Positions 54,039-60,652 of a stretch of 64,000 bases of DNA are shown in pieces. A program made the position numbers and the translations under genes. The stretch's first letter is position 1; every line of letters begins with the position of its first letter. The notes beneath the pieces are model-generated. The model was not told the origin of the DNA. It saw only the letters and a list, made by a program, of their open reading frames with translations, and searched no databases. This DNA comes from Actinomycetota bacterium (lineage in GTDB: Bacteria > Actinomycetota > Thermoleophilia > Solirubrobacterales > Solirubrobacteraceae): NCBI GenBank assembly GCA_005883215.1, contig VAYS01000010.1:62001-126000 (forward strand), read 5' to 3'.

Positions 54039-54968
54039 TCAGCGCTTGGAGAACTGCGGCCGCTTGCGCGCCTTCTTCAGGCCCGCCTTCTTGCGCTCCT
54101 TGGCGCGCGCGTCGCGCGTGAGGAAGCCGCGGCGCTTGAGCTCGCCGCGCAGGTTGGGGTCGGCCTCCAGCAGCGCGCGCGAGATGCCGTGGCGCAGCGC
54201 TCCCGCCTGGGCCGAGACCCCGCCGCCGTGCAGGCGGGCGACGACGTCCATGCGCTCCTCGTAGCCGACGGTCTCGAGCGGCTGACGGATGTTGCGCCGG
54301 AGCGTGGGTCGGGGGAAGTGCTCGTCCAGCGCACGGCCGTTGACCGTGTAGGTGCCCTTGCCCGGCCGCAGGATGACGCGGGCGATCGCGGTCTTGCGCT
54401 TTCCCGTCGCCCGATAACGGGCGCCGGCGGCAAGGTCGATGGCCGCCGCGGTGATGGGGGCGGGGGCCTCTTCCTCTTCCTCGATCGGCGCCGCCTCGGG
54501 CTCCTCGACCGCCGGGGCCAGGTCCTCGGCGTAGTCGGCGCCCAGCGCCTCGGCCCCCTGGGCGTCCGCCCCCAGCGGGTCCGCGCCCTCGGGGACGATG
54601 TCCACCTCGAGGTCGGCCCCGGGCACCTCGGGCCGAGCCCGCGCGGTCCCAGCCTCGGTCGAGGCCTCCTCGCGGGTCGCCTCGGCCGCAGGAGGCTTGG
54701 CCTCTTCAGCCCGCGGCGCCTCTTCGGCCGCCGGCTCCTGGGCCTCTTCGGCCGCCGGCTCCTGGGCCTCTTCGGCCGCCGGCTCCTGGGCCTCTTCGGC
54801 CGCCGGCTCGGCCGGAGCCTGCTCGGGCGGGGTCTCGGCGGGCTCCGACGCCGGTGCCTCGGGGGTCTTCTCGGCGGCGGGCTGCTCGGCTTTTTCCTCG
54901 GCCTCGGCTTCGGGGGCGGCCTCGGTGGGCTCGTCCGGTGGGCGCTCCTCGCGCGGCTTCTTGGCCAT
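54039..54968 (-). CDS. rpsI: Ribosomal protein S9 with long acidic N-terminal extension
   Basis: A 309-residue protein whose last 128 residues are a normal S9 ([41 protein letters not shown], ending [11 protein letters not shown]). The first 180 residues are an acidic, Ala/Pro/Glu-rich extension with four copies of EPAAEEAQ-like repeats (residues 54-85), continuing to an EEEEEAPAP segment just before the S9 core. Typical S9 is about 130 residues. The ATG overlaps the rplM stop by one base (TGATG), which fixes the start, so the extension is within the coding region, not a mis-start. It may be a chaperone-like tail or be cleaved. Confidence 0.93.
54714..54809 (-). repeat. Four 24-base repeats in rpsI encoding EPAAEEAQ
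   Basis: Four tandem in-frame units (the last ending in Pro) within the acidic extension of S9. The DNA copies are nearly identical, so recent slippage is likely. Confidence 0.9.
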
Positions 54969-55402
54969 CAGCTGCGGATCTCCATGGGTTCGGGTTTCTG
55001 GGCGGCGTGGGGGTGGTCGGGGCCGGCGTAGACCTTGAGCTTGGTCAGCTGCTTTCGGGCGAGCCGGTTGCGAGGCATCATCCCGCGAACGGCGCGGCGG
55101 ATGATCTCCTCGGGCCGACGGGTGAGCTCGTCCTCGAAGGTCCGGACCTTGAGCCCGCCCGGATAGCCGGAATGGCGGTAGTAGCGCTTGTCGGCCCGCT
55201 TGTTGCCGGTCACGGTGATCTTCTCGGCGTTGACCACCACGACGAAGTCACCCGTGTCGATGTGCGGCGTATATTCGGGCTTGTTCTTGCCCCGCAGGGC
55301 GTCGGCGATCTGGGTGGCCAGGCGCCCGAGGGTGCGCCCGTCGGCGTCGACGAGCAGCCAGTTGCGCTGGCGCTCGGCGGGCGTGGCTACGTAGGTCTTC
55401 AT
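54968..55402 (-). CDS. rplM: Ribosomal protein L13
   Basis: A 144-residue L13 of normal size: [87 protein letters not shown]. It is followed by rpsI with a one-base overlap, the universal L13-S9 pair. ATG at 55402 is fixed by homology. There is no ribosome binding site: the eight bases before the start are the end of a hairpin and U-tract. The operon continues to glmM. Confidence 0.97.
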
Positions 55403-55409
55403 TGGCGCG

Positions 55410-55440
55410 AAAAAACGCCACGCGCTGGGGGCGCGCGGCG
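55410..55440 (-). promoter_or_regulatory. Hairpin plus U6 directly before rplM (attenuator or upstream terminator)
   Basis: On the minus strand a 10-base stem with one G-U pair, 5-base loop CCCCA (55440-55416), is followed by six T (55415-55410), then eight bases, then the rplM ATG. It is an intrinsic terminator by form. It could end the acylase transcript (stop at 55473) or attenuate rplM-rpsI. A TATCAT -10-like element at 55451-55446 just upstream would put the start site at the stem base. Confidence 0.7.
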
Positions 55441-55445
55441 CAGCC

Positions 55446-55451
55446 ATGATA
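55446..55451 (-). promoter_or_regulatory. Possible -10 (TATCAT) of rplM-rpsI
   Basis: TATCAT on the minus strand lies 5 bases before the attenuator-like hairpin, so transcription would begin at or near the stem. No -35 seen. Tentative. Confidence 0.3.
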
Positions 55452-55472
55452 GGCCATGCCGTCCTCAGGCCC

Positions 55473-58400
55473 CTATGGGCGGGGGATCTGGCCTGGCACC
55501 TCGACCGCCTGCTGGAACGTTGGACGGTTGACCCAGGCCAGCAGCCGCTGGGTGATCGCCCCCAGCGGGCGAAACCAGATCGCGTCGTAGCAGGCCTGGT
55601 CGCCGTCGCGCCCGGCCTGCTGGCAGACGGCGTCGCCCCCGTAGAGCTGGGCGGCGCTGACGCCCAGCGCGTCGCGCAGCGAGCTCTCGAGCGCCGCCCG
55701 GCAGGCGGCCAACGAGCCGTTTCCGCAATAGACCCGCGACATGTCGGGCGCCGGGGCGGCCGGGCGCCGCCGCCCGGGCCGGCGTCGCGGCCGCCGCTTG
55801 GCCCGGTGGCGCTTGCGCCGGTGGGCGACGCCTCGGGGGGCCCGGCGGCGGCGAGCCGCCCGGCGGCGCTTGGGCTTCCTGGGCTTGGGCTTGACCGCCC
55901 GGCGGGGGCTGAGCACGTCCCTCAGGTCCTCGAGGGCGTATCCCTCCCAGCCGCCCTGCCAGGAGGACCCGACGTGGTCGCCGTCGTTGTTTGGGTCGTT
56001 GGTCAGCCGGTTCATGCGCTGGACGTCGGCGAACAGCTTCGGGCCCAGCACCGGCTCGAACTCGGCGTGCATCCAGCGCGGCCACCAGGCGTCGAGGATG
56101 CGGATGGCCTGTGCGTGGTCGTAGGTGCCGCTGCGCGTGGGATCGATGCGGTGTCCGCCGTCGGCGACCCAGGCGCGCAGCTCGTCGACCGCGTGGCGCA
56201 GGGTCGGATCGGCCGGCTCGCCGATGACCCGCAGCGCGTAGGGCAGCACGGCGTCGGCGCGCAGGTCGACGGTGGCGGCGTCCTCCATCGCCGAGGCCAG
56301 CTGCGGCAGCGTCGCGCGATGGGTCGCGGCCAGCGCATGGACCCGGTCGGCGAGCAGCTTCTGACGGTAGGTGGCGGTGTAGCCCCAGTTGTCGTCGGCC
56401 GCGCGATAGCCCGGGGCCTGCTTGTTGTTCCAGTCGGCCGCCCACTCCTGATCGAGGAACTGGGGGTGCTCGGCGGGCGCCGTGAACGCCGCCAGGGTCA
56501 GGGCGTCGGGGTGATAGTCGCGCCACTCGTACCGGGGCTGGCCCAGGATCGGCAGGTCGGGGTCGGTCCCGGCGGCACGGCGGGGGTTCCAGCCGGAGTT
56601 CTGATAGGCGACGTGGTGGGCGTCGACGTAGAACCAGTTGAACGTGTAGCCGATCAGCGAGGCCGCGCGCTGGAAGTCCGCCGGGGTGCGCATCCGCGCC
56701 GGATCGTTGAAGTAGGAGAACGCCAGGCCCGCGTCGGGCTCGTGCAGGTAGGTCGAGCGCAGCCTGGTGTAGGCGACGGGGCGCACGCCGATCGTGCCCC
56801 GGCCGACGACCAGGCCCAGTCGCGTGCGCTGCGCCCGCAGCGTCTCCTGTCCCGCCGGCGTGTTGTCGGCGGCAGTGGGCTGCCAGGAGTTGGTGCGGTC
56901 GAGGATCTCCATGGGCACGCAGCGATCGCCGTCGCGGTAGCCGGTGGAGGCCGTCGTGGGCGGCCCGCCGGCGGGGTCGCAGAGGTCCAGGGCGAAGGTG
57001 TCGACGATGTCCTGGGCCGAGGTCGTCGCGCTCCAGGCGTAGTCGGTGCCGTGGCCGATCTGCACGTAGAGGTTGACCCCGGGAAAGGCAACCCCGCGCG
57101 CCGACAGGCCCGGCGCCTGGAGCTCCTGCTCCATCAGCACCTCGGGGGTGAAGTAGCCGGTCTGAGGGCCGAACACCGCCAGCGGGTGCCCGCCGGCCGC
57201 GTCGCGGCCCGAGATCAACAGCGCGTTTGACATCGCGTGGGGGAAGGCGAGCAGCCCCTGCCGGGCGCGCGCCAGAGCGCCGGAGGCCGACGCGGCGCCC
57301 GGCCGCGGGGCCGAGGCGCGCGCCGCGTCCGAGCCGGCGCTGGTGCCCGGCACGCCGGGGACCGCCTGGGTTCCCGAGCCCGAGCCGGCGACCTGGATGT
57401 CGGGGCGGGCGAGGGAGCCGCGGTCAAACAGGGCCAGCGCCGGGCTGGGATGACGCGGGACGGGCGGGGAGGCAAAGCGCCGGCCGCGCACGGTGGTGGG
57501 CGCGTCGCGGACGTCGGCCGAGCGAAAGTCGTTCCACGCCCGCCAGCCGCCGGCTGAGCCGAAGCGGGCCTGGGCGTCCTCGAGCGTCTGGGCGCCGTCG
57601 AGCTCTGCGCCGCCGCCGACGCCGAAGATCGCCCCGATCACCCCGGCGGTGGCCACCGTGTCGGTGGGCTTCCAGTCGGTCGGGCCCTCGGGATGGCCGA
57701 TCGCCGCGTACTCGCCGGGCATCTTGGAGGGGTCGGCGCGGGCCTCGGTGATGTACTGGTTGATCCCCGCCACGTACTGGTCAAGCTCCGAGCGCAGTTG
57801 GGCGGACTCGGCCTCGAAGCCCGGGCGGGGAGCGTCGATCTGGCGCTGCAGGTCGGACTCGGTGTAGGGGGCCACCCGCCACATCAGGTGGTCGAAGGCA
57901 CGGTTGGCCGGGCTTCCGCCGACGAAGGACGACAGCTGAGCGCGCCCCAGGTGGCGAAAGACGTCGATGAAGAACAGGCGGTCCTCGGCGGTGGCGTAGC
58001 CGATGCCGAACATCGCGCCGGCGCGGGTGGCGCCGTAGACGTGGGGCACGCCGTAGGCGTCGCGGACGATCGTCACGTCGGCACGCGGGCTATAGGTGCG
58101 CTCGGCCTGGCCCAACGGGACGCCGAAGGTGGCGTCCTTGAAGTAGCGCCCCAGGTCCCCCGCGCCCAGCCCGCGGTAGCCGTAGAGCAGGTCGCGGTAC
58201 ATGGCCAGCTGGTCGTCGGTGTGCGGGGGTCGCGCGCCGCCGGCCTCGAACTGCCCGAGCTGGATGAGGTTGTCCAGGCCGCCCTGGCCCGCGGGCAGCA
58301 CGTTGCGAAACCCGCCGGCGTCGAACTGCCCGTAGGGCAGCGGCGCGGGCCCCGAGGGGCTGGTCAGGGCCGGAAGCCCCTGCCGAGGCTGAGCCGAAGA

Positions 58401-58505
58401 TCCCCGTGGGGTCTGGCTGGCAAGCGAAGCGGCCGGCGCGGCCAGCCCGGCCAGCAGCGCGACCAGCGCGCCGGGCCCCAGCAGCCTCCTCCCCCGAGCA
58501 AGCAC
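55473..58505 (-). CDS. Secreted penicillin acylase-family (Ntn) amidase
   Basis: A 1010-residue enzyme. GTG at 58505 was chosen because TAGCGT ends seven bases before it and it yields a clean signal peptide ([29 protein letters not shown]). The precursor shows [50 protein letters not shown] in short blocks typical of the alpha subunit, then a linker and the beta-subunit Ser nucleophile in [13 protein letters not shown] (about residue 426) and [13 protein letters not shown]. Such enzymes cut themselves and hydrolyse amides of acyl groups, e.g. beta-lactams or acyl-homoserine lactones. An Arg/Lys-rich insert of 48 residues lies near the C terminus (about 868-915). Confidence 0.86.
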
Positions 58506-58512
58506 GCCGGTG

Positions 58513-58518
58513 ACGCTA
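58513..58518 (-). promoter_or_regulatory. Probable -10 (TAGCGT) of the acylase gene
   Basis: TAGCGT on the minus strand ends 7 bases before the GTG at 58505. This, with the signal peptide, decides between the possible starts; an in-frame upstream start would run through this promoter. Confidence 0.45.
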
Positions 58519-58574
58519 GCGCCCTCGCCGCCACCCGGCGCCGGACGCCACACGCCCGCGTCCGGCGATCCGAC

Positions 58575-60536
58575 CTAGGTTCCGCTCACGCTGACGTTGG
58601 CTGCCTCGCGGGTCGGCAGCACGAGCGTCGGGGGATCGAACTGGATGCCGCTGGGGACGTTGCTCGGCCTCAGGTAGGGCTGGTCGACCTGCGTGAGGTC
58701 CAGCCGGACGCGGTGCCCCGGGGGCAGGCGCCACTGATTCCCGTACAGCGGCAGGCGGATGGTGCCCGCCGGCGCGTCGTAGGCGGGGGTGTCGAGGCGA
58801 TAGACGCCGCGCGTCATCAGCAGCGTCGTCCCGTCCGGGGCGACGTCCCAGACGCGGGCGTCGAGCTGGGCGCTCGGCCCCCCGGTCATCGTGTAGGGAA
58901 CCTTCACGTACCCCAGCCCGACGTAGGTCAGGGCGCTGGAGACCGGCTGGGAGACTGCGCTGTAGTCGGGCGAGGGGCCCGGCGAGGTGCGACAGGGCTG
59001 CCCGCTTATGCCCACCACGCCGGGCAGGACGGGGTCGGTGGCCGGGCCGTTGGGGTCCACCCCGCGACCGGTCGAGGTCAGGATGTCGCCCCGCTCATAG
59101 CCAATGGCCAGCGCGCCCGCCGAGAGCCCCTCGGGGGTCGTGGCGCTCAGCTCCTGCGCCTGGTTGTCGTTGTTGCCCGAGGTGGCGTCGTTGCCGCACA
59201 CGGTGGGCTCGCTGGTCACGGTCGTCGTCTGGCGGTGCGACCCCGGCAGCTGCTCGGACAGGAACTGCCAGGCCTGGGCGTTGAGCCGGTGCCAGGTCTG
59301 GGGCTTGTTCTGTCCGCGCGAGTGCCCCACGTCGGCGACCGTCAGGCTCACCGGCCAGCGGGCGTCCAGGCGCTTGAGCAGCTTGTACTGGCGGAAGGAC
59401 TCGACCGCCTCGAACAGGTCGTCGGTCCACCCCTGGATCGAGAAGACCGCCACCTCGCGCCCGCTCGTCTGCGCCGCCCAGTCCTGGTAGTAGGAGCCCC
59501 GGAAGTGGGTGAGCCCCCGGCGGATCTGGGCCGCCAGCGGGTCCTCGGCGCCGGCGAGGTCATAGGGCTCGCCCTGGATCACGCCGCGATGAAACCAGGA
59601 GGTGATGTTGATCGGACCCTCCTCGGACGGCGTCGTCGTGGTGCCCTGCTCAAACACGCCGGTGGCATCCCCGAGCGCGGTTAGGCCGGTGACGTAGCTC
59701 AGCTTGACCACGCCGAAGGGGTTGCCCGCTCCGGTGGCGCTGTCGCTGTGGCCCTGCGAGGACTCATAGATGTCGTTGCCCGTGGGGCCGCCGCCGTGGC
59801 CGTTGGGCGCCAGGCTGTAGGCCTGGTCGGTCCACGGGTACTTGGGCACGGCGACCTGCAGCTGGAGCACCGGCAGCGTGGGGTCGACGCTATGGGGAAA
59901 GCTCCACACCGGCTGGCTCGCCTGAAGCCAGCTCTCGCCCCCGCCGTAGGAGCCACCGCTGACCGCGACCTGATTGGGGTCGAGGTCGGGATGAGACGCC
60001 GCCGCCAGCGCCGCCAGCCACTGGCTGTCGCGGATCTCGAACTCCCGGCTCTTCAGGTGGATCGTGCCGCTGGGCAGGTCGACCGAGCCCTGCGGGCTGC
60101 CGGATGGTGTGTTGGGCTCATAGCTGGCGTCGGGTCCGTCGTCGCGAAAGCCGCGCGGGGTGTAGGTGAGCACGTAGAAGCCGTGCTCGGCGAACCAGTG
60201 GCTGTTCCAGTGGAACTTGTCCGCGCCGTCGCCCTCGTTGGTGGTGGACTCCCACTCGTGCTTGTTGTTGCCAAAGCCGTTAAAGAGCAGGATCAGGGGA
60301 TGGGAGGCGCCGGTCCCGGTCGCGGGCAGCGTGAGGTCGACGTCGAGCTTCGAGCCGTCGAAGCTGGGCACCTCGCCGGAGCAGATCTGCTGGTCGCCGT
60401 AGGCCGGACAGCTCCCGTCGGGCGCCGGGTTGAGGAAATGCAAGCTAGGTGCCGCGGCGCCCGCGCCCGGCGGCGCGATCGCCACCAGGACCAGCCAGCC
60501 CACGATCGAAATCGATGCCGCGAGACCTCTGACCAT
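58575..60536 (-). CDS. Secreted CocE/NonD-type acyl esterase (X-Pro dipeptidyl-peptidase S15-like)
   Basis: A 653-residue exported hydrolase. Signal peptide VRGLAASISIVGWLVLVAIAP with cleavage near AGA. The alpha/beta-hydrolase domain has PLILLFNGFGNNKHEWES (oxyanion region) and the Ser nucleophile in AVSGGSYGGGES (G-x-S-x-G-G); the C-terminal jelly-roll domain is visible from VWDVAPDGTTLLMTRGVYRLD to PPGHRVRLDLTQVDQPYL. The substrate may be an ester or amide. ATG has GGGAGGGGTGCA upstream. It is followed by the acylase (38 bases between its stop and the acylase promoter), so the two secreted hydrolases may act together. Confidence 0.85.
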   Translation of the reverse strand: MVRGLAASISIVGWLVLVAIAPPGAGAAAPSLHFLNPAPDGSCPAYGDQQICSGEVPSFDGSKLDVDLTLPATGTGASHPLILLFNGFGNNKHEWESTTNEGDGADKFHWNSHWFAEHGFYVLTYTPRGFRDDGPDASYEPNTPSGSPQGSVDLPSGTIHLKSREFEIRDSQWLAALAAASHPDLDPNQVAVSGGSYGGGESWLQASQPVWSFPHSVDPTLPVLQLQVAVPKYPWTDQAYSLAPNGHGGGPTGNDIYESSQGHSDSATGAGNPFGVVKLSYVTGLTALGDATGVFEQGTTTTPSEEGPINITSWFHRGVIQGEPYDLAGAEDPLAAQIRRGLTHFRGSYYQDWAAQTSGREVAVFSIQGWTDDLFEAVESFRQYKLLKRLDARWPVSLTVADVGHSRGQNKPQTWHRLNAQAWQFLSEQLPGSHRQTTTVTSEPTVCGNDATSGNNDNQAQELSATTPEGLSAGALAIGYERGDILTSTGRGVDPNGPATDPVLPGVVGISGQPCRTSPGPSPDYSAVSQPVSSALTYVGLGYVKVPYTMTGGPSAQLDARVWDVAPDGTTLLMTRGVYRLDTPAYDAPAGTIRLPLYGNQWRLPPGHRVRLDLTQVDQPYLRPSNVPSGIQFDPPTLVLPTREAANVSVSGT

Positions 60537-60652
60537 TGCACCCCTCCCAGGGATCGCCCGTTCCTCCCCTGCGAGGGTCGCCCTTACCCAGAACTGCTCC
60601 CGCCCACACGCCCGGCCGCCGCGGGCTATCCATCGCCTTGCGGGCCGCGGCG

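What the first reader, a model, noticed from the sequence alone, without database searches (positions are those of the whole stretch)
55761..55904. Arg/Lys-rich insert in a secreted penicillin acylase
A 48-residue stretch, mostly Arg and Lys with Pro and His, interrupts the C-terminal part of an otherwise normal Ntn amidase. Histone-tail-like charge on an exported enzyme could bind DNA, teichoic-type polymers or acidic lipids and hold the enzyme at the surface.
Basis: partly seen in the sequence, partly recalled or inferred. Interest (0 to 1): 0.5.

Follow-up and report, generated by a model that had tools for sequence, protein, structure and literature searches.

The report
Cationic loop inserts in exported acylases
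An ordinary, probably exported penicillin-acylase-type enzyme carries a roughly 50-residue arginine/lysine-rich floppy loop, and sister enzymes in this bacterium and a near relative carry different but equally basic loops at the same place, which suggests an electrostatic tether rather than a one-off accident.

Summary
Confirmed and extended. Window ORF 55473-58553(-) is a Pfam Penicil_amidase (PF01804). Residues ~884-936 form a basic insert (23 R, 6 K, no D/E) between two conserved anchors: 79 aligned rows from public genomes have 38-49 residues there (69 have exactly 40); the window protein has 89. It is not a one-off. Three of four acylases found in this genome, and three of three found in genome G016 (another genus, same family), carry basic inserts in the same loop; 17 readable rows from 13 other genomes of the family do not. 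The six insert-bearing copies fall in four places on the tree; one clade is rejected (AU p = 7e-7, 22 rows). In one paralog two Cys-bounded Arg/Lys modules differ by 7 synonymous and 1 replacement change, pointing to selection on the protein. AlphaFold leaves the insert as a disordered loop on a well-folded core. Some relatives carry F5/8C domains or LPXTG-like tails instead, or basic inserts in other loops. Best reading: a cationic tether holding the enzyme to anionic envelope or matrix polymers. Binding is untested, and a genome-wide basic-secretome trend is weak. New variant of a known kind; interest moderate.

The parts
55473..58553 (-). Probably exported penicillin-amidase-family protein, 1026 aa (GTG start as listed; later starts possible)
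   Evidence: PF01804 E 1.4e-102; AlphaFold model pLDDT 83.8, pTM 0.85; PDB acylases Z up to 24.9
55746..55904 (-).
   Evidence: 89 aa between anchors against 38-49 in 79 rows; coil, mostly low confidence, in the model
57228..57230 (-). Nucleophile Ser442, first residue of the beta chain
   Evidence: Invariant in 38 rows; aligns to residue 1 of beta chains of solved penicillin G acylases
57243..57470 (-). Spacer region between alpha and beta chains, residues 362-437, GC-rich but not basic: internal control
55905..55967 (-). Upstream anchor, [21 protein letters not shown] (res 863-883), holding a predicted helix 869-881
55701..55730 (-). Downstream anchor [10 protein letters not shown] (res 942-951) with invariant C943 and C951, possibly a disulfide
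   Evidence: the disulfide is inferred
58416..58514 (-). Likely signal peptide (a later GTG start, n-region RGRR, hydrophobic run, ASLAS), about residues 14-46
   Evidence: sequence and a home-made heuristic; no dedicated predictor was available
58575..60536 (-). Neighbour: exported-looking Peptidase_S15/CocE-like hydrolase without a basic tail
   Evidence: PF02129

Best explanation
The insert is a flexible polycationic tether. The enzyme folds, cleaves itself at Ser442 and works as an ordinary amidase. A disordered Arg/Lys-rich loop, hung from a permissive turn in the C-terminal part of the beta chain, sticks to negatively charged polymers of the cell envelope or surrounding matrix (cell-wall glycopolymers, acidic lipids, exopolysaccharide, extracellular DNA) and keeps the exported enzyme near the cell. 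In this lineage the same loop has taken basic sequence in several acylase paralogs. Shown by sequence: insertion, recurrence at the same site, keeping of charge. Predicted: disorder, export. Inferred: self-cleavage (from the family), binding and retention.
For: Insert proven against 79 rows. Same loop basic in 3 of 4 acylases found in the own genome and in 3 of 3 found in G016, another genus of the family; absent from 17 readable rows of 13 other family genomes. Insert-bearing rows fall in four places on the tree and one clade is rejected, AU p 7.3e-7 (22 of the 47 rows): recurrent gain or copying between paralogs. The six inserts, with short flanks, have net charge +16 to +50 and 0-2 D/E. Two Cys-bounded modules of L003 differ by 7 synonymous and 1 nonsynonymous change, P = 0.001. 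Low-confidence coil in a good model. 33 of 78 public rows measured carry a 130-140-residue C-terminal extension; 5 of 38 rows scanned match F5/8C in Pfam, as many as have the extension (the output does not name the rows). LPXTG-like tails in L082 and in a broken copy in L012. Basic inserts in other loops of Solirubrobacterales and Patulibacter rows. Some other proteins here end in basic tails: S15-like, subtilase, glycosidase-like.
Against: No binding data. The organism has two sortases, so it is not short of covalent anchors. The window copy lacks the cysteines of the L002/L003 modules, and its nearest relative L009 (54-60% identity) has no insert. Only two genomes show it at this site. The wider host trend is weak: exported proteins with a 30-residue stretch of net +12 or more are 5 of 91 in the two genomes against 0 of 43 in six control genomes (Fisher p 0.18); the mean best stretch does not differ (6.4 against 5.7, p 0.31), and exported proteins are somewhat more basic than others in the control genomes too (p 0.028). 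The L003 test is one pair and ignores mutation bias. One old gain with losses, or copying, would also give the scatter on the tree.
Confidence: 0.5

Rival explanations
1. Tolerated low-complexity growth: a permissive surface loop collects GC-rich repeats by slippage, and R-rich sequence is what GC-rich codons give. No function.
For: Insert GC 87%; short imperfect tandem repeats at 55745-55779 and 55795-55824 and in L003; sequence not conserved between paralogs; sampled own genome 72% GC.
Against: Similarly GC-rich spacer of the same protein is not basic; lysine codons AAG are kept; inserts of L118, L138 and L144 have GC 72-76% yet net +16 to +22; acylases with a net >=+12 stretch 5 of 7 against 5 of 91 other exported proteins in the two genomes (Fisher p 7e-5); synonymous excess in L003 modules.
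Confidence: 0.22
2. The loop acts on the enzyme's own work: it recruits acidic substrates or a partner protein, or gates the active site, and cell retention is secondary.
For: Same site in all six inserts; Cys-bounded modules in L002, L003, L118 and L138 look like a structured element rather than a bare tail.
Against: Relatives with the same invariant residues lack it. Distance from loop to active site could not be measured (no coordinates were returned).
Confidence: 0.15
3. The loop is a processing element: dibasic runs are cut by extracellular proteases, giving a third chain or releasing a cationic, perhaps antimicrobial, peptide.
For: Many RR/KR pairs in a loop predicted disordered; acylases are already self-processed (family knowledge, recalled).
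Against: Nothing shows cleavage; the part after the insert is conserved and confidently modelled; released peptides would differ in every paralog.
Confidence: 0.1

Closest known systems
Penicillin G acylases / D-succinylase / cephalosporin acylases (Pfam PF01804, Ntn hydrolases)
   Same: Fold (7ea4 Z 24.9 over 643 residues; E. coli and Bacillus PGA beta chains Z ~18), Ser nucleophile at the start of the beta chain, spacer
   Different: The basic insert; also a modelled N-terminal region before the Pfam match begins (match 159-886)
Actinobacterial acylases with a C-terminal F5/8 type C domain (Kribbella, Streptomyces, Kitasatospora and others)
   Same: Same core and loop anchors; also an extra module beyond catalysis
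   Different: The module is a folded galactose-binding-like domain at the C-terminus, not a cationic loop
LPXTG-type sortase substrates in the same family (L082 LPTTG, L012 LPFTG tails)
   Same: Acylase with a likely surface-attachment element
   Different: Covalent anchoring signal; the window protein has none
Cationic non-catalytic tails of exported enzymes in general
   Same: Charge-rich, attached to a normal enzyme (tails on S15-like, subtilase and glycosidase-like proteins here)
   Different: Those are C-terminal tails; here the charge is an internal loop at one repeated site

Membership tests
Penicillin amidase (PF01804) | Profile match over the curated cut-off | tested here: met
   345 bits against cut-off 21.3, res 159-886
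Penicillin amidase (PF01804) | N-terminal nucleophile Ser at the start of the beta chain | tested here: met
   S442-N443 invariant in 38 rows; aligns to beta-chain residue 1 of solved PGAs. The cleavage itself is not shown.
Penicillin amidase (PF01804) | Fold of solved members | tested here: met
   pTM 0.85; Z 17-25 to solved penicillin G acylases and relatives
Penicillin amidase (PF01804) | Autoproteolytic maturation and amide hydrolysis | not testable with these tools
   needs expression and assay
Penicillin amidase (PF01804) | Export signal | tested here: inconclusive
   home-made heuristic only
bifunctional acylase PvdQ (NF051460) | Curated equivalog score | tested here: not met
   36.8 bits against cut-off 950
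Sortase-anchored (LPXTG) protein | C-terminal LPXTG, hydrophobic run, basic end | tested here: not met
   protein ends ...[17 protein letters not shown]
Histone-tail-like or other basic DNA-binding family | Match to a known basic DNA-binding family | tested here: inconclusive
   Pfam at E<=1 lists nothing over the insert, but profiles serve low-complexity sequence poorly

The most novel reading that the evidence does not exclude
One loop of this acylase family is a docking site for charge. In one actinobacterial lineage four separate paralog lines acquired polycationic inserts at the identical position, partly by passing around a Cys-closed Arg hairpin (C-R-x-V-R-R...R-G-[KR]-V-V...V-R-V-C) that is kept under purifying selection. 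This would be a non-covalent surface-display module that spreads inside a genome, standing in for the F5/8C domains and LPXTG tails of relatives.
Probability: 0.3. Interest if true: 0.6.

Novelty: new variant of a known kind. Interest (0 to 1): 0.42.

Why it matters
If true, it shows how a bacterium can turn a soluble exported enzyme into a surface-held one by growing a charged loop rather than fusing a domain, several times at one site. It gives a naturally tolerated insertion point in a family that includes industrial acylases, useful for immobilisation, and a test case for whether charge, rather than sequence, is what selection keeps in disordered segments.

Tried and rejected
A frameshift pair bounding the insert: rejected, conserved family sequence in the same frame on both sides and GC3 of 0.94 inside against 0.93 in the rest. 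A simple triplet repeat: rejected, mixed CGC/CGG/CGA/AGG and AAG codons and only short weak tandem repeats. Inheritance of the insert in a single clade: rejected by AU test on 22 rows; one old gain with many losses, or copying between paralogs, is not excluded. The AU test on all 47 rows did not finish, so 22 chosen rows were used under LG+G4; there starred branches force at least 3 changes, against 4 in the 47-row quick tree.

A genome-wide habit of basic exported proteins: only weakly supported. C-terminal 20-residue net charge averages +1.68 (91 exported) against +0.20 (388 without signal peptide or membrane segment) in the two genomes, and +0.51 (43 exported) in six control genomes, p 0.027; mean best 30-residue stretch does not differ from controls (p 0.31). 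ORF calling was crude and the signal-peptide rule home-made. One search counted the L003 acylase among the other proteins and one search counted L144; one search corrects this. One search's other comparison, with public loci: Cys-free count of exported proteins with net +12 or more was 0 of 15 (Thermoleophilia loci) and 0 of 43 (other loci).

Lack of sortase as the reason: rejected, two sortases found. The Cys-bounded module elsewhere: a pattern scan of the sampled genes found it in acylases L002, L003 and L138, plus two weak look-alikes (C31:17628 and G016 C5:40517), and in none of 305 control-genome and 521 public-locus genes; the rule misses L118 (has a Glu) and the L164 esterase tail (too few basic residues). 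The L003 insert as a query over the own genome found itself, L002 (E 1.6e-4) and three matches of E 0.07-1.7 that I did not follow. RNA features at 55000-60600: none over Rfam's gathering scores. Paper searches found nothing to the point (listings with the first lines of abstracts; no paper was opened).

Full report
What is there. On the - strand, 55473-58553 encodes a 1026-aa protein. Pfam finds one confident family, Penicil_amidase PF01804 (345 bits, residues 159-886). An AlphaFold model built on 38 aligned rows is good (mean pLDDT 83.8, pTM 0.85) and matches solved acylases: D-succinylase Z 24.9 over 643 residues, penicillin G acylase beta chains Z about 18 with residue 442 on beta-chain residue 1. 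S442 and N443 are invariant in the 38 rows. The enzyme core is therefore normal.

The insert. Between the anchors [10 protein letters not shown] and [10 protein letters not shown] (both counted) the window protein has 89 residues, while 79 rows from 77 loci of the genome-contig scan have 38-49 (69 of 79 exactly 40), with net charge at most +10 and on average +1.4, against +26 here. The scan returned 79 loci; rows were kept if they aligned past residue 1000, plus L014; L076 and L078 dropped out. Composition: 23 R, 6 K, 9 P, 9 A, 2 H, no D or E in 53 residues; 0 of 20,000 base shuffles reached the R+K count, though 1,750 also lacked D/E. The alpha/beta spacer of the same protein is GC-rich too (82.5%) but has 7 R, 0 K, 3 D. 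In the model the insert is coil, mostly of low confidence, between helix 869-881 and the helices at 943-963.

It recurs in this genome and in a neighbour. The own genome has three more acylases by this search. L002 has 133 and L003 has 157 residues between the anchors, both strongly basic; L004 has the usual 40. No other genome of the genus is held. In 25 genomes of the family (own included), 16 have a match to a 243-residue catalytic-domain query. G016, of another genus, has three matches, all with basic inserts at the same place (98, 99 and 85 residues); 17 readable rows from 13 other genomes have 39-44 and no insert (one of them, L134, aligns poorly there); the match in G005 did not reach the loop. 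Net charge of the six inserts with short flanks is +16 to +50 with 0-2 acidic residues, though their sequences differ.

How it arose. On a tree of 47 rows made without the insert columns, the six insert-bearing rows need four changes. On 22 of these rows, four changes again (starred branches force three), 0% of 200 bootstrap trees with one origin, and an AU test rejects one clade (p 7.3e-7). The four places are: the window gene (sister L009, no insert), L003 with L138, L002 with L118, and L144 (sister L139, no insert). Either the loop gained basic sequence repeatedly, or sequence was copied between paralogs, or an old insert was lost many times. Copying is hinted at by a Cys-bounded Arg/Lys module shared by the L002/L118 and L003/L138 lines. 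L003 has two copies of it, 91% identical as DNA; they differ at 7 synonymous and 1 nonsynonymous sites where 25.7 and 61.3 sites were open (P 0.0012). This is one pair, and mutation bias at third positions is not modelled. The window copy has no such module.

Context across the family. Of the 78 public rows whose C-terminus could be measured, 33 carry a 130-140-residue C-terminal extension; 5 of the 38 rows scanned match F5/8 type C in Pfam, the same number as have the extension there. L082 ends in an LPTTG tail, and a broken third copy in L012 ends in an LPFTG tail. Solirubrobacterales and Conexibacter rows L062, L063, L017 and L061 have basic inserts after residue 334 (net of the best 30 residues +9 to +18), and Patulibacter L070 and L075 have milder ones after residue 356 (+8, +9). 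So the family gains extra modules more than once, and in Thermoleophilia several are basic.

Is it a habit of the host? In 446 kb of the own genome the five most basic 30-residue stretches all lie in proteins with a predicted signal peptide: three acylases, an S15-like hydrolase with a long K/R tail (C53:183845-186073), and a protein without a Pfam match (C53:75383). A glycosidase-like protein (C43:45073) comes lower, level with proteins not predicted exported; a subtilase with a basic tail was not flagged as exported. In G000 and G016 together, stretches of net +12 or more occur in 5 of 91 other exported proteins and 5 of 388 proteins without signal or membrane segments (p 0.025), against 0 of 43 exported proteins in six control genomes (p 0.18); acylases 5 of 7 (p 7e-5 against the 91). 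The mean best stretch does not differ between the two genomes and the controls (p 0.31), and exported proteins are more basic than others in the controls too (p 0.028). The contigs were partly chosen because they hold acylases, gene calls are crude and signal peptides heuristic. The host trend is at most suggestive; the acylase excess is clear.

Interpretation. Recurrence at one site, constant charge with changing sequence, predicted disorder, and the presence of other attachment modules in relatives fit a polycationic tether. It works like an attachment module; it is not a member of a named one. What it binds is open. Neutral loop growth is the main rival and is weakened, not excluded, by the points above.

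Noticed in passing
54039-54968 (-): A gene that looks like ribosomal protein S9 (named from recall, no family search) with a long Ala/Glu/Pro-rich acidic N-terminal extension, including tandem EEAQEPAA repeats.
   Followed up: no
58575-60536 (-); G000 C53:179711-186073: Acylase beside an S15/CocE-like hydrolase; a second acylase and S15-like gene lie one gene apart on C53, where the S15-like copy has a K/R-rich C-terminal tail of roughly 85 residues with two cysteines.
   Followed up: partly
L062, L063, L017, L061 (after query residue 334); L070, L075 (after residue 356): Basic inserts in other loops of the same enzyme family in Solirubrobacterales, Conexibacter and Patulibacter.
   Followed up: partly
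L164:2215-3513 (-), genome G016: Esterase (PF00756) near the insert-bearing acylase L144, ending in a Cys-bounded basic tail.
   Followed up: partly
L012, + strand, frames upstream of 5784: A third acylase copy broken over several frames, ending in an LPFTG sorting-like tail.
   Followed up: no
Kribbella, Streptomyces, Kitasatospora and related loci: 33 of 78 acylase rows measured carry a C-terminal extension of 130-140 residues; 5 of 38 rows scanned match F5/8C.
   Followed up: partly
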